Assembly (NCBI GenBank): GCA_028717725.1
Contig: JAQUNG010000005.1
Span: 1 to 37,671, forward strand
Direction: 5' to 3'
Source of the DNA: a bacterium
GTDB lineage: Bacteria; Auribacterota; UBA6266
Length of the DNA: 37,671 bases
Made by a program: the position numbers and the translations under genes. How positions within the stretch are numbered: the stretch's first letter is position 1; each line of letters begins with the position of its first letter. Positions 246 through 37,671 of the stretch are shown piece by piece. The notes beneath the pieces were generated by a model. The model saw nothing but the letters and a program-made list of their open reading frames with translations, was not told the origin of the DNA and did not search any database.

Positions 246-1402
246 ATGTTTTGTCGTCCCGGCGAAATATTTTTCTTATATTCTTCGGCCACCTTGATTC
301 TTTTGGAAATCGCGGGGTGGCTGTAAAGTAAAAACTCGATTATCCTGTTAGGCTCTTTGTTGGCCAGGTTCTGTTCCGCCAGCTTTGTCATTCCCGATAT
401 AAACGCGTCCGGGTTCCCTGTTTTCTCCAAGGCAAACCTGTCGGACTGCCTCTCGAAAAACCGTGAAAGCGCGTTAAACGTGGGCATAGCCACAAGCTGG
501 ATGACATATATCAGCAAAGCGATAAGCGGGAAAGTAGCTATATTATAAAATTCAATATAACCGTGATATCTTATATCGACCAGCCCTTTAAAAATCATAT
601 TTATCAAAGCGAAACTGACAATATAAAAAAAGGCGCCCGCGTATAAAAATTTATATATATGCCTGAACCGATGGTGCCCGAACTCATGGGCCACAATGGT
701 CTCAATCTCATCCTCCGAATAATTTTTCAGAAGCGTGTCTCCGAGTATTACTTTCTTGGTGTTACCCATTCCGGCAAAAGCCGCATTTGCTTTTTTTGTT
801 TTCTCGCTCAATATCCATTCATAAACACCGAGAAGCCTGCCGCCCTCCTTTTCAATGAACCCTTTTATCCGTTTTTCGAGGCTTTCATTCTCAATCGGCT
901 TCAACTTATAAAAAAGCGGGAGTATAAGCGACGGATATACCTTGCTCATAATTACGCTGAATATTATCCATATGACAGCCGTCCATATCCACCAGCTTCC
1001 CGGCTGTTTCCACAAAAGAAGATACAAAGCCTCCATAAGGATAAGTTTCATCAAAACTCCGATAACAAGTTTCTTTGCCTCATCCTTGAACCAATTAAAC
1101 CGGTTAAGGTTGGAAAGGGCGTATTTATGCTCTATATGATAAGAACCGTAATAATGAAGGGGAAGGAATATTACCCAGTTGATGACGGCAAAAGCTATCA
1201 GATATACCGCGTTCAGAGAAATAAAATGGACTACCCGCCCGTAACTTTCGGGTATGTTTTTCTCCGCTATTTTCATAAGGTTCAGCGAAAGGGGCGTCAT
1301 AAAGAAACAGAGCAATACGGTAACGGTCAGGACAATGTCCGCGAGAAAAAGCAGGTTGTTGATTTTTTCGTATCTTTTAGCGTCTCTTTTTATTTCAGCC
1401 AT
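242..1402 (-). CDS. M48 family membrane metallopeptidase (CAAX protease 1 / Ste24-like)
   Basis: A 386-residue integral membrane protein. Hydrophobic segments lie near residues 18-38, 60-82, 117-131, 138-165, 252-272 and 287-305. The zinc-binding HEFGH motif is at 239-243, and the third ligand glutamate is in the downstream FFERQSD segment (E317). This layout matches the CAAX prenyl protease 1 (Ste24) branch of M48, which cleaves peptides inside or next to the membrane. Bacterial members are usually linked to membrane-protein quality control, because prenylated CAAX substrates are not expected. The gene follows atpK after a 143-bp gap that holds small hairpins, and overlaps rsmI by 4 bases. 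The family assignment is secure; the substrate is unknown. Confidence 0.9.
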   Translation of the reverse strand: MAEIKRDAKRYEKINNLLFLADIVLTVTVLLCFFMTPLSLNLMKIAEKNIPESYGRVVHFISLNAVYLIAFAVINWVIFLPLHYYGSYHIEHKYALSNLNRFNWFKDEAKKLVIGVLMKLILMEALYLLLWKQPGSWWIWTAVIWIIFSVIMSKVYPSLILPLFYKLKPIENESLEKRIKGFIEKEGGRLLGVYEWILSEKTKKANAAFAGMGNTKKVILGDTLLKNYSEDEIETIVAHEFGHHRFRHIYKFLYAGAFFYIVSFALINMIFKGLVDIRYHGYIEFYNIATFPLIALLIYVIQLVAMPTFNALSRFFERQSDRFALEKTGNPDAFISGMTKLAEQNLANKEPNRIIEFLLYSHPAISKRIKVAEEYKKNISPGRQNI

Positions 1403-1427
1403 TATTTTTTCGCCTTTAACACTTCCT

Positions 1428-1461
1428 GCTTACGAAGTAAGCGCGTCCGCGGAACGCGGAC
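1428..1461. repeat. Two adjacent perfect mini-hairpins with GAA loops
   Basis: GCTTAC-GAA-GTAAGC (1428-1442) is followed two bases later by GTCCGCG-GAA-CGCGGAC (1445-1461). Both stems are perfect and both loops are GAA, which reads TTC on the other strand. They lie in the atpK to M48 spacer. The same stem-TTC-stem layout occurs with different stems near 30.6 kb, so this looks like a family of small palindromic repeats. They could also act as mRNA stability or attenuation structures between the two genes. Confidence 0.7.
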
Positions 1462-1463
1462 AA

Positions 1464-1535
1464 TTAAACAGTTAAATGATTCAATGCTTTAAAAGTTCAA
1501 TAGTTGAACAATCCGGCGGTTCTGACTACTAAACT
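1464..1535. repeat. AT-rich repeat tract shared with 30458-30522
   Basis: The tract contains TTAAACAGTT (1464-1473), TTCAATAGTT (1496-1505) and ACTACTAAACT (1525-1535). All three words recur at 30458-30522 in a different order. Both places are intergenic and next to stem-TTC/GAA-stem hairpins. This is best read as a degenerate dispersed repeat of the genome; no coding potential is visible. Confidence 0.6.
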
Positions 1536-1545
1536 TAATTTCTAA

Positions 1546-1998
1546 CTATTTCACATTCGCGACGCCCATCATAATAAATACCATCACAAAAAGGGCCACT
1601 GTTTCGATTACTCCAAGTACCATGATATAGTTGCCGAAACCTTTACCCGTTTCCGCCATCGCATCGGAAGCAGCCGCGCCGGCCCTGCCCTGCATAAGAG
1701 CGCTCATTCCCAAAGCAATGCCCGCAAGAATCCCGGCCGCCCAAAGATATACGCCCGTGCCGGCTTTAGCCGACAGGGTGTTCATAACGATAAAACCGTA
1801 AATCGTCTGCGACAAAGGCGCGCCGACAAAAACCGTGAGAATAAAAGGAGCCGCTTTGCTCTGCGCAAAACATTTTTTCCATGCTCCGACGGCCGCCATC
1901 CCTGCGGCGCCTGTCCCCAATGCCGATCCCACGGCCGCCAAAGTCAAGGCCGCGGAAAACCCCAAATCCTGAAACTGCGATAAAATATTTCCGGTCAT
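1546..1998 (-). CDS. atpK: V-type ATPase subunit K (membrane c-ring subunit)
   Basis: A 150-residue proteolipid with four hydrophobic helices arranged as two hairpins, as in V-type ring subunits (about twice the size of an F-type c subunit). The ion-carrying carboxylate is E132 in the last helix. Residues aligning with the sodium ligands of Enterococcus hirae NtpK are present: S63 and Q64 in the PLSQTIYGF segment, and Q103, 29 residues before E132 exactly as in NtpK. The ring carries ions past subunit I as it turns. The ATG overlaps the atpI stop by one base (TAATG). Subunit identity is certain; Na+ coupling is inferred from these residues. Confidence 0.95.
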   Translation of the reverse strand: MTGNILSQFQDLGFSAALTLAAVGSALGTGAAGMAAVGAWKKCFAQSKAAPFILTVFVGAPLSQTIYGFIVMNTLSAKAGTGVYLWAAGILAGIALGMSALMQGRAGAAASDAMAETGKGFGNYIMVLGVIETVALFVMVFIMMGVANVK

Positions 1999-3797
1999 TA
2001 TTCCCTTCCTCCTATTTCAATTCTATCATTTACCAAGTCCGCCCGCTGTCCTTTAAACGGGCTATACTCCACTCCCGACCATTCCATGTTCAAATGGTTT
2101 GAAAACTCCAACACATTGAGTCTCACGCCGTGCACGAGAACAGCCATGGCGCCCAATACAATATTCAGTCCGTGCCCTATCAGAAGAATCAACGCCGTAG
2201 CCAGTCCCGCCGCCGCGGACGACCAGCCGAAGCCTTCCGCGATCTGGTTAAAGGCATCCGCTATAGCGACGGATGCCATCCCCACGGCAAAAAGCCTTAT
2301 ATAAGAAACCACGTCGGAAAAACTGCCTATGATGCTTAAAAAGGTCGTAATGAGCCGCGGGAAAAGATCTTTGAAAAAACTTTTGAACGGGACGCTGAAA
2401 AACAGCACCGCGGAAATACCGCACACGAAAAGCCAGACGGCAAAGGCGGGAAAGTCGGCGCCGACAATAAATGTCCTCGCGAGAAAAAACGCTCCCCATA
2501 TCACGGCAATCCATCCTAAATCCGCGGCAAAAATAACCGAAGGCATCTTTCTCACAGCCAGCCAAACATGCGCTATCGTAAGCTGTAAGGCTCCTATAAT
2601 AAAACACAGCTCTTTCATATTGGAATCAACCGTCAGCCACGGCATCAGCGGCTTGAATGCCTGTTTTATCCAGACCTGCCCGAAAACAGTGCCGGTTAAA
2701 ACACCCCATACAATCGTCGCGACACTCAAAACATACATAAGGAACAAAGGTCTTTTGTCTTTAATCTTATCGCGCAGTTTGAGATTTACGAAAATCACGG
2801 CGGCCAGTATTAAAGCGCCGTAACCCGCGTCACCGATAAGCATCGCAAAGAAAACCGAGAAAAACAGGAGAAAAACCAGGCTTATATCCACTTCCCTGTA
2901 TCCGGGCACTGTTTTTATTATATTAAAAACCGGCCTGATAAGCTCCACCCATCCCGGATTTCTCACAAGTGTAGGGACATTATCCCCGTCCGAGGGTTCT
3001 TCTATTAAAACCGCCCATTGATTTTTCTCAGCCGCTTTTTCCAGGTCCCCGGCCTTATCGAAGGGACAGTATCCTTTCAGATAAGCAAGTTCCCCCTTTT
3101 TCCCCATCCCTGAACGGGCTTTTTCAAATTCCATTTCTTTTTCCATGTGTCCGAGCATAGCTTTCAACTCGTCCCTATATTGCGCGTAATTTTCAAGGGT
3201 TTTGTTTATTTCCCCGACCTTATCATCGATTCCTTTTTTCTCCGCCCTGATTTCAGCAAGCCTTGTTTCGGGAAACTCAAGTGTTTTAAAAGAAAACTCC
3301 CGCTCTTCGCCGGAGACAAGCACACACCGCACTACACCGCCGCTTTTTGAAATTATCTCCCCAAAAACATCCGATGGCACGGAATTAAACTCTTTAACCG
3401 GCAGTTCGGCAAGATAAACATATAATCCTTTCGTTCTGATTCTCTTTACGAGGGAAACGTCGAAATCCCCCCAGTCGTCCCATTTGTCTATATGCCTTTG
3501 CAGTTTGGCGGATTTTTCCGAAAGCCTGTTCCTGTAATCCCTGATATCCAGAATCTCGTTTATTATTTTTCCCCAGTTCTCGATTTTTTTGACGGTTAAA
3601 TCTTTTGCCGACGGAGAAAGTATTTCCAGCGCTCTTGATATCATATAAATGTCTTTCTGAACCTCGTCGACCGCGTGGCTGTGCGGAGATTCAATATTCT
3701 CAACGTGGACGAGTCCCAGAGAGGAAAGTTCGTCCAGGGCGTCCGACGCGTCTTTGCCCTGCACGACAATATTAATTTTCTTCATGGGCACTATCAT
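1998..3797 (-). CDS. atpI: V-type ATPase subunit I (a-subunit, ion channel and stator)
   Basis: A 599-residue protein with the two-part structure of V-type subunit I/a. The N-terminal half (about 1-290) is soluble with coiled-coil stretches and acts as a peripheral stator arm. The C-terminal half (about 300-580) has roughly seven membrane segments forming the half-channels beside the K ring. The N-terminus MIVPMKKINIVV is typical of the family; a second Met at residue 5 is an alternative start, but AGGA lies at suitable spacing before the first. It sits between atpD and atpK in the conserved order. Confidence 0.95.
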   Translation of the reverse strand: MIVPMKKINIVVQGKDASDALDELSSLGLVHVENIESPHSHAVDEVQKDIYMISRALEILSPSAKDLTVKKIENWGKIINEILDIRDYRNRLSEKSAKLQRHIDKWDDWGDFDVSLVKRIRTKGLYVYLAELPVKEFNSVPSDVFGEIISKSGGVVRCVLVSGEEREFSFKTLEFPETRLAEIRAEKKGIDDKVGEINKTLENYAQYRDELKAMLGHMEKEMEFEKARSGMGKKGELAYLKGYCPFDKAGDLEKAAEKNQWAVLIEEPSDGDNVPTLVRNPGWVELIRPVFNIIKTVPGYREVDISLVFLLFFSVFFAMLIGDAGYGALILAAVIFVNLKLRDKIKDKRPLFLMYVLSVATIVWGVLTGTVFGQVWIKQAFKPLMPWLTVDSNMKELCFIIGALQLTIAHVWLAVRKMPSVIFAADLGWIAVIWGAFFLARTFIVGADFPAFAVWLFVCGISAVLFFSVPFKSFFKDLFPRLITTFLSIIGSFSDVVSYIRLFAVGMASVAIADAFNQIAEGFGWSSAAAGLATALILLIGHGLNIVLGAMAVLVHGVRLNVLEFSNHLNMEWSGVEYSPFKGQRADLVNDRIEIGGRE

Positions 3798-3820
3798 ATA
3801 ATAATCCTGTCGCGATAATA

Positions 3821-4441
3821 TCAGGCGGCGGCAAGTTCCAGCACTTTTTCTATTTTTTTCTTTGCTATCTTGCTCCTGCCCACCGCGTTGGTTTCCTGAT
3901 CCCCTATATATATCCTTATCGTTTTTATGTTTTCTTTACACTCGGGTATCTTAACTTTTTCAAAAAGATTTACCCTTTGCATCGTGGTCTTCAATTCCTT
4001 GTTTAAAAGTTCGTGCTGTTTCTCCACGATTTTATTTCTCGCAAGCACCTCCGCCAGTTTCCTTATTTCCTCAATGGCGTAATCCACCCACAGGGGCATA
4101 ACAAAAAGGTCGTAATCGGGATCGGGAAAATCAACTCTTCTAAAAACGGGAATGTTTACCCCTGCAATATTATCTGAGGAAGTAACAATATCTTTAGGCT
4201 TTACCCATTTGGCAAGGTCTATGCCCGGTTCCGCGAGAATTCCTATCCAGCTTACCATATTTTTTTTAATTTCCTCTACCTCCCCGCGGTGTTTTTTGAG
4301 CTGGGCTTCGGTCTTGCGCACTTCTATCTGCAGTTGTTGCTGCTTAAGCTGAAGAGTGGGCAGATATCTCTGAAACTGCCCGAGAGAATCCCTCTGGCTT
4401 TTCAATTCGCCTTTTGTAAATTTAATTTTTTTTCTTGCCAT
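3821..4441 (-). CDS. atpD: V-type ATPase subunit D (central rotor shaft)
   Basis: A 206-residue, mostly helical protein. The N-terminal helix carries KFTKGELKSQRDSLGQF, the usual beginning of V/A-type subunit D. Both ends form long coiled coils that pass through the A3B3 head as the rotor shaft. It starts only 3 bases after the atpB stop, and atpI follows after about 23 bases, so it is an operon member. No separate subunit F gene is visible; F is likewise missing from the compact bacterial V-ATPase operons of chlamydiae and treponemes. Confidence 0.93.
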   Translation of the reverse strand: MARKKIKFTKGELKSQRDSLGQFQRYLPTLQLKQQQLQIEVRKTEAQLKKHRGEVEEIKKNMVSWIGILAEPGIDLAKWVKPKDIVTSSDNIAGVNIPVFRRVDFPDPDYDLFVMPLWVDYAIEEIRKLAEVLARNKIVEKQHELLNKELKTTMQRVNLFEKVKIPECKENIKTIRIYIGDQETNAVGRSKIAKKKIEKVLELAAA

Positions 4442-4444
4442 CTG

Positions 4445-5869
4445 TCAGTTTTTCTTTCCTGCCGCCGAATTATTATTCCCATCTCCGGCGCTCAATTCTT
4501 CGACTGTTCTCGGGCCTTCTTCTATTCCTTCTCCCTCTTCTTCTCCGGCGCGCGGCTCCTGCTCAACAGGGGTTTTTGATTTGGGCCAGAACTTGTTTGT
4601 CATCTCTGTTTTTATCCCGGTTTCTTCGGGAGAAAAACATTCCGCCATTATCTCCCAGCCCCTATCAAGGGCTTTTTCAAGAGGCACATTCACTTTAAGC
4701 GACATAAGTTTTTCTTCGAACAGGGCACCGTATTTGAGCAGTTTTTCATCCCACTTGCTCACCTGAAAACCCATAGCGAGTTTCTCTTTTGTCTCTTTAA
4801 AATCGGCATACAGCTGTATCATTGTATCCATAACCGTTCTGTGGTCTTCTCTCGTTTTCCCGTTAACCTGCTGTTTTAACCTGCTCAGCGAACCAAAGGG
4901 TTCAATTCTTCCATTCCTCAGATAAAACTGCCCCTCGGTAATGTACCCGGTGTTGTCCGGCACGGGATGGGTTACATCGTCGCCCGGCATAGTGGTAACC
5001 GCAAGCACGGTTATAGAACCCTGATCGGAAAAATCAACCGCTTTTTCGTATCTCGCCGCGAGCTGGCTGTATAAATCCCCCGGATACCCTCTGTTGGACG
5101 GAATCTGCTCCATCGTAACGGCGACTTCTTTCAGGGCGTCGGCAAAATTCGTCATATCCGTCAGCAGAACCAGGACGTCCTTGCCTTTAATCGCGAACTG
5201 TTCCGCGACCGCGAGACACATATCGGGCACCATGATACATTCCACCGTCGGATCAGACGCCGTATGGACAAACAGTATGGAACGCGATAACGCTCCGTGT
5301 TCTTCAAGCGTATCCCTGAAAAACAGGAAATCGTCGTATTTTAATCCCAGGCCGCCAAGTATTATCACGTCGACTTCCGCCTGCATCGCTATTCTGGCGA
5401 GAAGTTCGTTGTAAGGTTCGCCGGCAACGGAAAAAATCGGGAGTTTCTGCGACACTACAAGGGAATTAAAAACATCTATCATCGGGATGCCGGTCCTGAC
5501 CATCCTGTTGGGAATGATCCTCTTCGCAGGATTGACGGAAGGGCCGCCTATTTCCACCATATTATCCGCAAGAGAAGGTCCGTTGTCCCTCGGTATTCCG
5601 CTGCCGTTAAAAATTCTGCCCATCAGGTTATCCGAGAAAGAAACCTGCATCCTGTGTCCTAAAAACCTTACTTCATCGCCGGTGGAAATCCCTCTGCTTC
5701 CCGCAAATACCTGGAGAGAAACCTTGCTCCCGTCGAGTTTTATCACCTGGGCAAGCGATTTTCCCCTCGAAGTATTTATTTCAGCAAGCTCCTGGTTGCC
5801 CACTCCCTCGGCCTCAACGGCTATAACATCCCCGACTATCTGAAGTATTCTGCTGTACACTTTACGCAT
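4445..5869 (-). CDS. atpB: V-type ATPase subunit B (non-catalytic nucleotide-binding subunit)
   Basis: A 474-residue member of the RecA-fold ATPase family that alternates with subunit A in the head. As expected for B there is no P-loop; the equivalent region reads [15 protein letters not shown]. The body includes [13 protein letters not shown] and [17 protein letters not shown], both hallmark B-subunit segments. The last 45 or so residues, after KFWPKSK, form an acidic low-complexity tail (many E, G, D, N) beyond the usual end of the family. The gene lies 4 bases after atpA and 3 before atpD. Confidence 0.95.
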
Positions 5870-5873
5870 AAAT

Positions 5874-7610
5874 TTATCCTTTGTCTTTTACATTCTTTTC
5901 AACTTTTTCTTTCAAAGATTTTTGCCGTTCTCCGAATTTGCCGCTTCCCCACGGATCCGAATTCCAGTTTTTGAATTCCTGCCTTATTTCGTGGAAAAAA
6001 TGTCTTGCCTCATCTTTTGTCCCGAAGGTGAAATCCGATTTCAGGATCTCATACAAAATACCGAAAACGTATTTCTGCCTTTCGGCCGGGGTTGCGCCGT
6101 CGACTTCGTCGAACGCGTTCTGCTGGAGATAAACATCGTCGACAAATTCCCCTTTCAGGTATTCGATGAAATCACTCATAGCAGTCCCTTCTTCGCCGAC
6201 AACCTTCATCATCTGTCCGACTTCGGAACTTTTGCGCAAAATATACCTTACGTATTCGACCTGTTCCCGCTCCACAACACTTTCATATTTGCTCCAGGAA
6301 TCAAGAGGGTCTATCGCGGGGTATTTGCGCGCATCCGACCTCGCGCGGGACAAACCGAGAAACGCCCCGACGACTTTAAGTGTCGCCTGAGTCACCGGCT
6401 CTTCAAAATTGCCGCCCGCGGGACTGACGGTTCCTCCTATTGTAACAGAACCGATTTTACCGTTATTAAGCCGGACAATACCCGCCCTTTCATAAAAAGA
6501 CGCTATGCGCGATTCGAGATAAGCGGGGAAAGCTTCCTCGCCGGGAATCTCTTCAAGCCTTCCCGACATCTCTCTCATGGCCTGCGCCCACCGTGAAGTG
6601 GAATCAGGCAGAAGAAGAACATTCAATCCCATTTGCCTGTAATATTCAGCGATCGTAACCGCGGTATAAACGCTTGATTCCCTCGCGGCAACGGGCATTG
6701 AACTTGTGTTGCATATGATGATTGTCCTTTCCATCAAAGATTTGCCTGTTCTCGGATCTTTGAGTTCCGGGAATTCGAGGAGAGTCTCCACTACTTCGCC
6801 CGCTCTTTCTCCGCACGCGGCGATAATCACTATATCGACTTCCGCATGTCTGCTCGTAATCTGCTGGAGTACGGTTTTCCCCGCTCCGAAAGGCCCCGGA
6901 ATGCAATAAGTGCCGCCGAGCGCCACAGGTACAAGCGTATCGATGATTCTGACTTTGGTAATAAGAGGGTCCGCGGGTTTTATCTTTTCGGCGTAAGCCC
7001 TGATAGGCAGTTTGACCGGCCAGAGCTGCACCATTGAAACTTTTTCCGTGTTCCCTTTTTTATCTTTGATTTCCGCTATCGTATCTTTTATCTTATAATT
7101 GCCCTTCGGAGCAACCGAAGAGACTTCATATTCTTCGCGGAAAGAAAAGGGGACCGTTATATAATGCTTGAAAATTCCTTCGGGAACCGATCCCAGGAAA
7201 TCACCCGCTTTCACCTTGTCTCCCTTTTTCGCCTCCGGAGTAAATTCCCATTCCTGCTCGTAAGAAAGCGCATTTAAATAAACACCCCTTTTGAGAAAAT
7301 ATCCACACTCTTTCGCAATCTGCGGAAGCGGATTCTGAAGCCCGTCATAAATCTGCGTCAAGAGCCCCGGCCCAAGCTCAACGGACAAAAGTTCCCCGGA
7401 AAATTCCACTTTATCACCGACTTTCAGGCTCTCGGTATTTTCATACACCTGGAGGTCCGCTTTCCTTCCTCTTATCCGTATCACTTCAGATTTTAACTTT
7501 TCGTTTCCCGCAACGGCATACGCGACCTCGTTCTGGAGGACATAATTTTCAAATTCGGCTACTATCATATTGCCGTTTATGGCTGATATTTTTCCTGTTC
7601 TTTCGCTCAT
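5874..7610 (-). CDS. atpA: V-type ATPase catalytic subunit A
   Basis: A 578-residue catalytic subunit that hydrolyses or makes ATP in the A3B3 head. The P-loop GPFGAGKT is at 239-246, followed by the [11 protein letters not shown] segment that carries the catalytic glutamate. The A-type bulge domain (about 110-200, with [13 protein letters not shown]) is present and separates it from F-type beta. Length is normal. The ATG overlaps the end of the DUF2764 gene by 4 bases, indicating coupled translation. Confidence 0.97.
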
Positions 7611-34680: not shown

Positions 34681-36012
34681 CTATATCGCGAGATCCGTTT
34701 TTTCATCATCGAAAATAAGCTGTGGCTTCACATAAAGAGCCGTGCCAAATGTAAGAGGCCCTACACGTCCGATATACATCATCAGGATAATTACCAGCTT
34801 GCCAAAAGCGGTCAGTGTCCCGGTGATACCTAAACTCAGTCCTACTGTACCTACGGCTGAAGCTGCTTCAAAGAATATCTCTAAAAATGTCCCGTTTTCT
34901 GTCAGAGTAAGCAGATAAGTTCCTATAACCAAAACCGAGATATAAAAACTAAGTGTGGCCACTGCTGTCCTAACGCGATCTTCAGGTACCGCCGCGCCCC
35001 AGATACGCACATTTTTATCGCCTCGTACAGCACTTTTCATCAGGCCCCAAATAGCAGAAAAGGTAGTAGTCTTTAAACCGCCGCCGGTTCCTGAAGGTGA
35101 AGCGCCGATAATCATCAGTATACAAATGAGCATGATAGCCGACTTTGACATCGTACTGACAGTAACGGTATTGAAACCCACGGTAGTAAGCGAAGTCATC
35201 GCCTGAAAGAAGGAAAACAAAATTCTGTTCTCCGGACCAAATCCTCCACCGTAGGTTTCCGTCAAAAACATTAAAGCTCCTCCAATCACAAGAAGCCAAA
35301 ACGTCAGGGAAAGAATGACTTTTGTAGTCAGCGTTACATGTTTTTCTTTCCCCTGGATAAGCCGCCAGACATCCACACATACAATAAATCCCATGGCTCC
35401 TATAATGCTTAAGCCGGATATGATGGCATTGAGGCCAAAGTTATTTGCCATGCCCTCGAAGCTGTTTGGAAACAGGCTGAACCCTGCTGTACAAAAAGCG
35501 GATACGCTGTGGAATATCGCACTCCAGACCGGATTCTCCGTGCCTGAGCGCCAAAATACGAAGAACAGACCTATAGCACCTATTAACTCTACTATGGCGG
35601 AAAAGCTTATAACACTTACGATAAACTTTTCTATCTTGAAATTTTTCGGTATACTGAATACCGTTTCTGCCACATTCTTTGTCCTGTCATCCAGGCATTT
35701 TTTGGTGGATAAGATAACAAAAGAGCTCAAGGTCATGTACCCGATACCACCAAGCTGAATAAGTACAAGTATAACTAACTGTCCCCAGAAGTTATAGTCG
35801 TTAACCACCGTAACCGTTGTCAGCCCTGTTGTCGAAACAGCGGATGTGGCGGTGAAAAGATTATCGAGGACAGGAACACAGTTTTTATGCATAAACGGCA
35901 TGCACAGAAGGATAAAGCCTACAAAAATATAGGACATATATCCCATGAGTACCAACCTCACCGGATTGACGGTTCTTAATTTGTAAAGAAGGCTTTTAAA
36001 ATAATCCTTCAT
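34681..36012 (-). CDS. TrkH/KtrB family potassium uptake protein
   Basis: A 443-residue membrane protein with the fourfold M1-P-M2 repeat. The four filter segments read SAVSTTGLTT, SAFCTAGFS, SLTTVGFNT and SAVGTVGLS, each with the central glycine that coordinates K+. Length and the absence of extra N-terminal helices favour KtrB rather than TrkH. A regulatory KtrA/TrkA gene would be expected but is not in the window. Both flanks are long gene-free gaps, so it appears to be a single-gene unit. Confidence 0.92.
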   Translation of the reverse strand: MKDYFKSLLYKLRTVNPVRLVLMGYMSYIFVGFILLCMPFMHKNCVPVLDNLFTATSAVSTTGLTTVTVVNDYNFWGQLVILVLIQLGGIGYMTLSSFVILSTKKCLDDRTKNVAETVFSIPKNFKIEKFIVSVISFSAIVELIGAIGLFFVFWRSGTENPVWSAIFHSVSAFCTAGFSLFPNSFEGMANNFGLNAIISGLSIIGAMGFIVCVDVWRLIQGKEKHVTLTTKVILSLTFWLLVIGGALMFLTETYGGGFGPENRILFSFFQAMTSLTTVGFNTVTVSTMSKSAIMLICILMIIGASPSGTGGGLKTTTFSAIWGLMKSAVRGDKNVRIWGAAVPEDRVRTAVATLSFYISVLVIGTYLLTLTENGTFLEIFFEAASAVGTVGLSLGITGTLTAFGKLVIILMMYIGRVGPLTFGTALYVKPQLIFDDEKTDLAI

Positions 36013-36167: not shown

Positions 36168-36524
36168 CTTTGTTTTACGATTTCGCAAAAAGTCAAAACT
36201 GGCGGTGTGTTCTTTCCTTTGTTCGAACTTACTTCAGGGGAACCCCTGAAGTAACCGCCTAAAAATTGTCTCTAACGAATGACTCGGCACGGCCGCAGGC
36301 CGCCCGCACCCGGCCTGCGGCCGTGTGCGTCCTCGCCACACGTGTAGTAGAGAAAATGTATGTAAAACAGCTAAGGGCTCGTCCGCATCCCGCCTGCTAC
36401 ACCTAAAAACTCGTGGACGGCGGGATTGCCGAGCTATTCAACGCGAAAACGACTCACAAAAAGGCAAAATTTGCCCGCACCCAAATTTTGCCTTTTTGTG
36501 AAAGAACAAATAGATAAAACAAAG
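36168..36524. repeat. Hairpin-dense non-coding block bounded by inverted repeats
   Basis: Outer inverted repeat CTTTGTTTTA (36168-36177) and TAAAACAAAG (36515-36524), inner pair TGTTCTTTC (36208-36216) and GAAAGAACA (36500-36508). Inside: TTACTTCAGGGG/CCCCTGAAGTAA (36229-36254, two-base loop); CACGGCCGCAGGCCG/CGGCCTGCGGCCGTG (36288-36325); an imperfect stem around ATCCCGCC/GGCGGGAT (about 36379-36435); and a perfect 20-bp stem, arms 36454-36473 and 36482-36501. No reading frame is credible. It may be a small mobile element or structured RNA. The gap from trkH to the block (36013-36167) shows nothing I can name. Confidence 0.7.
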
Positions 36525-36560
36525 CGATGGACAAAGTTTTGCTTGAAAACAGTATCTTTA

Positions 36561-36617
36561 GTGGTACAATGTAAAAAAGTGGTAGCATTAGATTAAATAC
36601 TATTAAAATAATACCAT
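36561..36617. promoter_or_regulatory. Candidate operator cluster (RTGGTA words) upstream of the XRE gene
   Basis: GTGGTA at 36561-36566 and 36579-36584 (18 bases apart) and its inverse TACCAT at 36612-36617. TATAAT at 36618-36623 may be the -10 of the regulator, though no good -35 is seen. Two more copies lie downstream of the gene (36862-36867 and 36895-36900). Such repeats on both sides fit an autoregulated controller, but binding is not shown. Confidence 0.4.
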
Positions 36618-36644
36618 TATAATATTACATAGTCAAGAGAAAAT

Positions 36645-36842
36645 ATGTTGTCAAAAAAAGTAAAAGAATTCAGAAATAAGCAAGGCTGGTCTCAACAGAA
36701 ATTAGCAGAGAAAACTGGTTTATCATTTAATACGATTACTAAAATAGAACAGGGTACAGGAACTTCCCCGACCTTAAAAACGTTGCTTAAGCTAGCAGAT
36801 GCGTTTGGAGTTGGCGTAGATGAGTTAATAGGACGAAACTGA
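36645..36842 (+). CDS. XRE-family transcriptional regulator (possible restriction-modification controller)
   Basis: A 65-residue protein consisting of one Cro/CI-type helix-turn-helix. The HTH core QQKLAEKTGLSFNTITKIEQG spans about 18-38 (first 20 residues: QQKLAEKTGLSFNTITKIEQ), followed by PTLKTLLKLADAFGVGVDEL. Size and place next to a type II restriction endonuclease fit a C (controller) protein, which delays the endonuclease until methylation is established. It could also be an unrelated small repressor. RTGGTA words flank the gene. The region is more AT-rich than the chromosome core, in line with transfer. Confidence 0.85.
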   Translation: MLSKKVKEFRNKQGWSQQKLAEKTGLSFNTITKIEQGTGTSPTLKTLLKLADAFGVGVDELIGRN

Positions 36843-36935: not shown

Positions 36936-36967
36936 AAAACCTTCGCTAAAAACAGCGAAGGTTTTTT
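36936..36967 (+). terminator. Strong intrinsic terminator in front of the restriction gene
   Basis: AAAACCTTCGCT (36936-36947) pairs perfectly with AGCGAAGGTTTT (36954-36965) around a six-base loop and is followed by T residues. It ends 36 bases before the restriction-gene ATG, with little room for another promoter, so the gene seems to be expressed by read-through. Confidence 0.8.
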
Positions 36968-37003: not shown

Positions 37004-37671
37004 ATGCCAGAAAATTTATTACCCAAATCAGATGCTATAAAATCACTTGTTTATACAGCGGTTGAATGTTATGCCGAAGGGTTTCAGGCACGACATGAAG
37101 GAGAAAAAGATGACCCCGATGGTACTTTAAATATGAAAATACACAATGTTTTTATTGCGGCCCTTGGCCCCGAACTACAATTTTATACAGCATTAGTTAG
37201 GTCTTTAGATAGTTCTTTAGGGAATATGTTAGAAAAACTTGCAATAAGCATAGCTAATTTTTCATATGAAGTTAATAAACGCGTTCAAGGACCGTTAGGA
37301 GTTGAACAAACGCGAGGTATTGCAGAATTGTTAGAAAAATATAAAAGAAGAGAGCTTAACCCACCAACAGTTGAAGATTATCAGTTTTTGAGGACAAAAC
37401 CAACGGACCAATCGTTACAGACTAAAAGGCATGAGAGTGACTATTATCTAATTGACAAAGAAACGAAGCAGCATTTTTTAATTGAGCTGAAAATCGGAGG
37501 TGATTTAGATAATAAGAAAGCTCGATCTGAAAAGGAAGCGCTTTTAGAGCAGTTCGCTATATTATCAAACACCCTACAAAGAGATACAGATATTAAAGTA
37601 TGCTTTGCTACCGCATACAATAGGTATGGTGAAGACAAGCCCTGGAAACAGGAACGTGTACGACAGTTTTT
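37004..37671 (+). CDS. TdeIII-family type II restriction endonuclease, N-terminal part
   Basis: The reading frame from ATG 37004 is open to the end of the window, giving 222 residues, so the C-terminus is missing. The region HESDYYLI...FLIELKIGGDLDNKKA contains a PD-(D/E)xK nuclease core: D146 and E161-L-K163. The segment GGDLDNKKARSEKEALLEQF closely matches TdeIII-type restriction enzymes, a family acting on GGNCC-type sites. AAGGAG lies ten bases upstream. The matching methyltransferase is expected beyond the window; none is visible here. Codon use is AT-rich compared with the core genes. Confidence 0.82.
   Translation, partial: MPENLLPKSDAIKSLVYTAVECYAEGFQARHEGEKDDPDGTLNMKIHNVFIAALGPELQFYTALVRSLDSSLGNMLEKLAISIANFSYEVNKRVQGPLGVEQTRGIAELLEKYKRRELNPPTVEDYQFLRTKPTDQSLQTKRHESDYYLIDKETKQHFLIELKIGGDLDNKKARSEKEALLEQFAILSNTLQRDTDIKVCFATAYNRYGEDKPWKQERVRQF

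What the first reader, a model, noticed from the sequence alone, without database searches (positions are those of the whole stretch)
36288..36501. Two hairpins with unrelated stems share an identical loop and closing pair
The stem at 36288-36325 is GC-rich (CACGGCCGCAGGCCG) and the one at 36454-36501 is AT-rich (TCACAAAAAGGCAAAATTTG), yet both enclose exactly CCCGCACC closed by G-C (GCCCGCACCC). Both are preceded by GACTC. Stems perfectly paired but different, with a fixed loop, imply selection for structure plus a loop-specific reader: a protein-binding site, a recombinase substrate or an RNA kissing loop. I know of no named element with this loop.
Basis: seen in the sequence. Interest (0 to 1): 0.75.

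Follow-up and report, generated by a model that had tools for sequence, protein, structure and literature searches.

The report
Constant-loop hairpins ending a defence cassette
Two DNA hairpins with different stems but the same loop mark the end of a mobile piece of DNA carrying an anti-phage restriction enzyme, and related mobile pieces in tiny bacteria (Patescibacteria) end in hairpins of the same design, with stems that change while staying paired and a C-rich loop that hardly changes, which suggests the folded DNA is itself a recognition signal.

Summary
GCCCGCACCC occurs only twice in the whole 1.75-Mb genome, both times here, each inside a perfect hairpin. Among 260 perfect hairpins surveyed over 1.27 Mb of that genome, no other loop of 6 nt or more is shared.

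The hairpins lie just inside a synteny break next to trkH. The break carries a large-serine-recombinase (LSR) attachment site and gene tail (36176-36266, ...NWRCVLSFVRTYF...*). A restriction cassette follows (XRE regulator plus TdeIII endonuclease, cut by the contig end).

Homologous LSR tails in Patescibacteria (and in one Dehalococcoidales-labelled MAG contig with the same XRE-TdeIII cargo) adjoin hairpins in the 53-356-bp terminal inverted repeats of cassettes. The cargo is mostly restriction-modification or CBASS genes. Their loops are nearly constant (Cn-N2-4-Cn, e.g. CCCCCCACACCCCCC; one copy contains CCCGCACCC). Their stems covary (9 of 15 pairs compensatory, 0/500 shuffles). The loop is present in 63 of 384 genomes of one class.

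So selection for structure with a loop signature is supported at family level. The window pair looks like a divergent member; its own right-hand repeat is missing. My preferred mechanism, a DNA-level hairpin signal for cassette movement, is inferred, not shown. Terminator and RNA roles remain open.

The parts
36288..36325 (+). Hairpin H1: 15-bp GC-rich stem, loop CCCGCACC (36303-36310); GACTCGG before the stem (36281-36287), TGCGTCCTCGC after it.
   Evidence: GACTCGG also follows the recombinase tail in L186; CTCGG...CTCGC flanks the family stems.
36454..36501 (+). Hairpin H2: 20-bp AT-rich stem, loop CCCGCACC (36474-36481); GACTC at 36451-36455 overlaps the stem.
36176..36266 (+). Attachment site and C-terminal tail of a large serine recombinase gene: YDFAKSQNWRCVLSFVRTYFRGTPEVTA*; core TTTCGCAAAAAGTCAAAACTGGCGG. 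The rest of the recombinase gene is not in the window.
   Evidence: 75% over 76 bp to L186, E 1e-7; peptide matches tails in L186, L270, L290, L292, L300, L301, L303; same DNA fused to tRNA 3' ends in L271, L274, L275.
36229..36254 (+). Perfect 12-bp inverted repeat (loop AA) inside the recombinase-tail codons.
36377..36434 (+). Imperfect hairpin between H1 and H2 (GCTCGTCCGCATCCCGCC ... GGCGGGATTGCCGAGC).
   Evidence: Folds; shares a 22-nt stretch (19 identical, one gap) with the H1 loop region.
36645..36842 (+). XRE-family regulator, 65 aa (putative controller of the restriction system).
   Evidence: Pfam HTH_3 E 2e-19; homologues just upstream of TdeIII in L186, L187, L197, L198, L206, L213.
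37004..37671 (+). TdeIII-type restriction endonuclease, 3' end cut by the contig end.
   Evidence: Pfam RE_TdeIII E 3e-28; contig length 37671.
34681..36012 (-). trkH, host flank of the insertion; synteny with G002 ends at about 36183, where G002 has a tRNA-Ser(CGA).

Best explanation
The two hairpins are structural elements in the end region of a mobile defence cassette. The cassette (hairpins, XRE regulator, TdeIII restriction-modification genes) entered the chromosome at an attachment site of a large serine recombinase (LSR) next to a tRNA-Ser locus. In related cassettes of Patescibacteria, both ends are near-identical inverted repeats of 53-356 bp. The longer of these start with the last codons of the LSR gene and hold one or more hairpins. 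There the loop is held nearly constant (C-tract, 2-4 nt, C-tract) and the stem may vary widely as long as it pairs. The window hairpins are a short-loop version (CCC-GCA-CCC). Most likely mechanism (inferred): the hairpins act as DNA structures, extruded cruciforms or single-strand hairpins. The constant loop would be read by the recombination machinery, or would pair the two ends with each other, so that one recombinase can move cassettes with unrelated cargo. Shown here: location, homology of the att/tail, cassette architecture in relatives, constant loop, covarying stems. Inferred: membership of the window pair, DNA rather than RNA level, and who reads the loop.
For: LSR tail and att core beside the hairpins. 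Same order att/tail - GACTCGG-hairpin - second hairpin - XRE - TdeIII in L186, whose cassette is bounded by >=98-bp perfect inverted repeats. 63 of 384 genomes of one Patescibacteria class carry the C-tract loop, about 22 times as convergent pairs (my count). Terminal repeats and cargo in 25 loci; defence cargo. Covariation: 96.5% paired against 83.5% shuffled, 9 of 15 pairs compensatory, 0/500 shuffles. One family loop, CCCCCCGCACCCCCC, contains the window 9-mer CCCGCACCC. H1 has the CTCGG/CTCGC flanks; C-tract loops and CTCG-based stems are rare in the own genome (6 and 17 of 972 hairpin readings). Polarity is set by the cassette end: C-strand reading towards the cargo in the main subtype and in the window.
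Against: The window loop is only 8 nt and lacks the inner GGAA/TTCC stem of the family. H2 has no CTCGG/CTCGC flanks. The right-hand inverted repeat of this cassette is not in the assembly, so two-ended structure is not shown here. The host is not a Patescibacterium. None of the other TdeIII loci has the exact loop and only a minority show inverted repeats. A second family subtype (L186, L292) has the opposite loop polarity. No experiment shows that the recombinase touches the hairpins.
Confidence: 0.6

Rival explanations
1. Transcription insulators: the hairpins are bidirectional intrinsic terminators that shield the cassette genes and the neighbouring chromosome from read-through; the loop is shared by descent only.
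For: H2 has the AAAAAGGC...GCCTTTTT form and is flagged as terminator-like on the - strand; hairpin B of L186 is followed by TTTTT; hairpins stand at both cassette ends.
Against: H1 and H2 have no U-tract directly after the stem on +, and the family consensus has none. Terminators do not need a constant loop or a conserved TC/TC internal loop. Polarity follows the cassette end, not gene direction.
Confidence: 0.2
2. A structured small RNA: the region is transcribed and the C-rich loops act by pairing with G-rich (Shine-Dalgarno-like) targets, as C-rich loops of some known sRNAs do.
For: Constant unpaired C-rich loop with variable stems is the picture of such sRNAs; the stems covary.
Against: No Rfam match in window or relatives. 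The loop core differs from an anti-SD CCTCC. The hairpins occur in inverted copies at both ends, so one copy would be antisense. The 8-nt complement GGTGCGGG in the own genome is mostly in ordinary sequence (by reading).
Confidence: 0.08
3. The likeness to the Patescibacteria hairpins is coincidental: the window holds two local hairpins that share a loop by a recent partial duplication, and hairpin-templated repair keeps the stems perfect.
For: Only two copies exist; flank similarity beyond GACTC is not above shuffles; the exact loop was found in no other hairpin.
Against: The position directly after an LSR att/tail and before the same XRE-TdeIII cargo as L186 is unlikely to be chance. C3-N-C3 loops and CTCG-based stems are rare in this genome. 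A partial duplication would have carried stem sequence along with the loop.
Confidence: 0.15

Closest known systems
Integron gene cassettes and attC sites
   Same: Small promoter-bearing or defence cargo, tandem cassettes, recombination sites rich in hairpins, structure kept while sequence varies.
   Different: Here a serine, not tyrosine, recombinase; inverted repeats at both ends rather than one attC per cassette; loop constant and stem variable (the reverse of attC); no R''/R' core pair seen around the hairpins.
Integrative elements of large serine recombinases at tRNA genes
   Same: The att site overlaps the 3' end of the recombinase gene and of tRNA genes; the recombinase has Resolvase, Recombinase and zinc-ribbon domains.
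   Different: Cargo cassettes without their own recombinase, bounded by long near-identical inverted repeats with hairpins; this is not a usual LSR element layout.
REP/BIME palindromes and their RAYT transposases
   Same: Short intergenic hairpins tied to a mobile-element enzyme.
   Different: REPs keep the stem sequence and a 5' tetranucleotide; here the stems differ and no RAYT gene was seen in the cassettes.
IS200/IS605 end hairpins
   Same: Subterminal hairpins at both ends of a mobile unit.
   Different: Those are not terminal inverted repeats of 53-356 bp and need a TnpA; none is present in the cassettes examined.
sRNAs with repeated C-rich loops (e.g. alphaproteobacterial cuckoo RNAs; from memory)
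   Same: Different stems display the same C-rich loop.
   Different: Different loop sequence; genomic setting at mobile cassette ends in inverted orientation; no Rfam match.

Membership tests
LSR-associated hairpin cassettes (as defined here) | LSR attachment site and recombinase tail at the outer edge | tested here: met
   36176-36266 matches L186 and other tails
LSR-associated hairpin cassettes (as defined here) | Hairpins with a C-tract, spacer, C-tract loop and unrelated stems | tested here: met
   CCC-GCA-CCC, counting the closing C, in H1 and H2; family loops. Loop is shorter than in the family.
LSR-associated hairpin cassettes (as defined here) | CTCGG before and CTCGC after the stem | tested here: inconclusive
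   H1 yes, H2 no
LSR-associated hairpin cassettes (as defined here) | Inverted copy of the end at the other side of the cargo | not testable with these tools
   Contig ends inside TdeIII at 37671; no second copy of the loop in the assembly
LSR-associated hairpin cassettes (as defined here) | Defence cargo without its own recombinase | tested here: inconclusive
   XRE and TdeIII present; rest of cargo beyond the contig end
Integron attC | Conserved R'' (RYYYAAC) and R' (GTTRRRY) boxes at the two ends of the folded site | tested here: not met
   By reading 36176-36645: TCTAAC stands left of H1 without a matching GTTRRRY to its right
Integron attC | IntI tyrosine integrase | not tested
   No search for IntI was made in the own genome
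Intrinsic terminator | GC-rich stem followed directly by a U-tract | tested here: inconclusive
   Not met on + for H1 and H2; H2 is flagged on - only
REP element | Many dispersed copies of one stem sequence in the genome | tested here: not met
   Stems differ; two copies only
Known structured RNA (Rfam) | Covariance-model score at or above gathering | tested here: not met
   Window: only a tRNA; nine relatives: none

The most novel reading that the evidence does not exclude
A previously unnamed class of mobile gene cassette in which one serine recombinase moves unrelated defence genes because it (or a partner) recognises folded DNA hairpins at both cassette ends by their constant loop while the stem sequence is free. 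The G-strand loops (Gn-N3-Gn, GGGTGCGGG here) could even join the two ends as a dimeric hairpin G-quadruplex. That would be a serine-recombinase counterpart of integron cassettes.
Probability: 0.25. Interest if true: 0.9.

Novelty: new variant of a known kind. Interest (0 to 1): 0.7.

Why it matters
Patescibacteria have very small genomes, and how defence genes move among them is little described. If cassettes with constant-loop, free-stem hairpin ends are mobile units, they give a sequence handle (att/tail plus hairpin) for finding defence genes across uncultured bacteria and a testable case of DNA structure, rather than sequence, serving as a recombination signal outside integrons. The presence of one in an unrelated host would show that the system crosses phyla.

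Tried and rejected
(1) Exact loop elsewhere: GACTC-N-GCCCGCACCC in 44 genomes of the phylum and AACG-N-GACTC-N-GCCCGCACCC in viral contigs: hits without stems, so chance. (2) DNA homology of the region in phages and plasmids: none. (3) Hairpins as a fixed part of the TdeIII system: not in the viral copy, and no CCCGCACC loop in 80 TdeIII loci. (4) Degenerate tRNA-Ser: only a 16-nt low-score match. (5) Rfam with permissive thresholds: only chance miRNA-like matches to a long perfect hairpin. (6) Direct repeat of the H1 and H2 left flanks: not above shuffles. (7) Tyrosine-recombinase core (arms around an 8-bp spacer) as in loxP/FRT: considered and rejected, because arms, not spacers, are conserved there. 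(8) Literature searches for the loop, the cassette or a similar system found nothing relevant; the library lacks most subscription journals.

Full report
WHAT IS THERE. The two hairpins are exactly as described: H1 36288-36325 (15-bp stem) and H2 36454-36501 (20-bp stem), loops CCCGCACC, closing pair G-C, C-strand on +. The 10-mer GCCCGCACCC occurs twice in the window (0.04 expected) and nowhere else in the 1.75-Mb genome. I read 1.27 Mb of that genome. Of 260 perfect hairpins there, this loop is the only one of 6 nt or more that two hairpins share. GACTC stands before both but overlaps the H2 stem. The same 270 bp hold two more inverted repeats, 36229-36254 and 36377-36434, and the block is GC-rich (up to 59%) in AT-rich surroundings.

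SURROUNDINGS. To the left lies trkH, whose neighbourhood is syntenic with a same-genus genome (G002) up to about 36183; there G002 has a tRNA-Ser gene instead. To the right lie a 65-aa XRE regulator and a TdeIII-type restriction endonuclease that runs off the contig. The other three genomes of the family lack the endonuclease. So the hairpins sit at the left edge of an acquired segment.

THE LINK. A scan of 85,000 species genomes for TdeIII relatives returned 80 loci, many in Patescibacteria. One of them, L186 (a contig in a Dehalococcoidales-labelled MAG), matches window 36175-36250 at 75% (E 1e-7) and has an XRE gene and TdeIII in the same order. Translated, the shared stretch is the C-terminus of a large serine recombinase: window YDFAKSQNWRCVLSFVRTYFRGTPEVTA*, L186 YDFTKSENWRCFLNEVRTFFEENPEN*. 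In other Patescibacteria the same DNA (TTACGATTTCACAAAAAGTGAAAATTGGCGG) is joined directly to tRNA 3' ends (L271, L274, L275), so I read it as the attachment site. The full-length enzyme (L303 8462-10072) has Resolvase, Recombinase and zinc-ribbon domains. In L186 the tail is followed by GACTCGG and two hairpins with different stems. In the window it is followed by GACTCGG-H1 and then H2.

THE FAMILY. The attachment motif led to further Patescibacteria loci (2 of 380 genomes in a phylum sample, 6 of 384 in one class). The hairpins after the tail have C-rich loops that hardly change and stems that do: GGGCGTGGCGGAA and AAAGAAAAAGCGGAA both carry TTCCCCCCAAACCCCCC; further loops are TTCCCCCCACACCCCCC, TTCCTTCCCCCCAACCCCCTTCC and TTCCTCCCCAGACCCCTCC. 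Searching for the loop (two mismatches allowed) found it in 63 of 384 genomes, in about 22 cases as convergent +/- pairs roughly 1.4-10 kb apart (my count). In the loci fetched, these pairs lie in inverted repeats of 53-356 bp, mostly 92-100% identical. Between them lie mostly defence genes: type I and II restriction-modification, CBASS cyclases, LexA-methylase fusions, CfrBI, EcoRI-type methylase with GmrSD, and TdeIII; one cassette carries redox genes instead. L206 holds two cassettes in tandem.

COVARIATION. On 21 distinct hairpins with a 15-pair model, 96.5% of cells are paired (shuffles 83.5%), 9 of 15 pairs show compensatory change, and no measure was reached by any of 500 shuffles or by slid partners. 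Pair 8 from the loop takes all four Watson-Crick forms. A TC/TC internal loop followed by a GC step near the base is conserved. The relatedness of the sequences inflates shuffle tests somewhat, but several different compensations are visible by eye. In L355 two neighbouring hairpins have unrelated stems and nearly the same loop, the same picture as in the window.

DOES THE WINDOW PAIR BELONG? For: position after the LSR tail; same cargo as L186; CTCGG before and CTCGC after the H1 stem; loop plus closing C is CCC-GCA-CCC, which occurs inside one family loop (CCCCCCGCACCCCCC, G481:C3); C-strand reading towards the cargo. In the own genome only 6 of 972 hairpin readings have a C3-N2-4-C3 loop, two of them these, and 17 have CTCG at the base. 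Against: shorter loop, no GGAA/TTCC inner stem, H2 without the flank motifs, other end unseen. I put membership at about 0.7.

HOW IT MAY WORK. Shown: structure kept by compensatory change, loop constant, hairpins at both cassette ends with polarity set by the cassette end rather than by the genes, LSR tail at the outer edge of the longer repeats. Inferred: the hairpin is read as DNA during cassette movement, by the LSR or a partner, or the constant loops pair the ends (the G strand Gn-N3-Gn is of a kind known to form dimeric hairpin quadruplexes; my own knowledge, untested here). Terminators or RNAs are not excluded, but the missing U-tracts, the inverted placement and the absence of Rfam matches speak against them as the main role.

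NOVELTY. I found no description of such cassettes or of this loop in the paper library, which lacks most subscription journals. It works somewhat like an integron cassette system but fails the attC box test. I file it as a new variant of a known kind (LSR-associated integrative cassettes with structured ends) and keep the categorically new reading as the novel case.

Noticed in passing
36936-36965: Bidirectional terminator-like hairpin (AAAACCTTCGCT...AGCGAAGGTTTT) between the XRE gene and the TdeIII gene.
   Followed up: no
L206 (Niyogibacteria) 544-3532 and 3552-7092: Two cassettes in tandem, each with its own inverted repeats; the first repeat has a hairpin whose stem is CCCGCACC, the same 8-mer as the window loop.
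   Followed up: partly
L303 8214-9964, also L304: The recombinase gene itself is flanked by 134-bp inverted copies of its own 3' end, one of them fused to a tRNA in L303, so the gene could flip between tRNA and cargo.
   Followed up: no
L186 1142-1180, L187 3637, L206 3629: A second hairpin type near the inner side of the repeats: different stems (TGTTGCCC, TCTTTTCC) around a similar loop TTGWCCCACCC, followed by AAGGAACT.
   Followed up: no
L184 4886-4936 and L212 6754-6790: Hairpins with unrelated stems sharing the loop TTCACCCCTWACCCCTC in two different organisms: another constant-loop, free-stem set.
   Followed up: partly
L162 15850-16310 (own genome, contig C2) and L088 4240-4770 (G002): A GIY-YIG-like reading frame between an intact tRNA-Ser and a partial tRNA-Ser copy broken up by several hairpins, present in both species.
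   Followed up: no
L359, L307, L348, L350, L362, L364: Small cassettes between inverted repeats with defence or unknown proteins (for example a 961-aa and a 468-aa protein without Pfam match), possible new defence systems.
   Followed up: no
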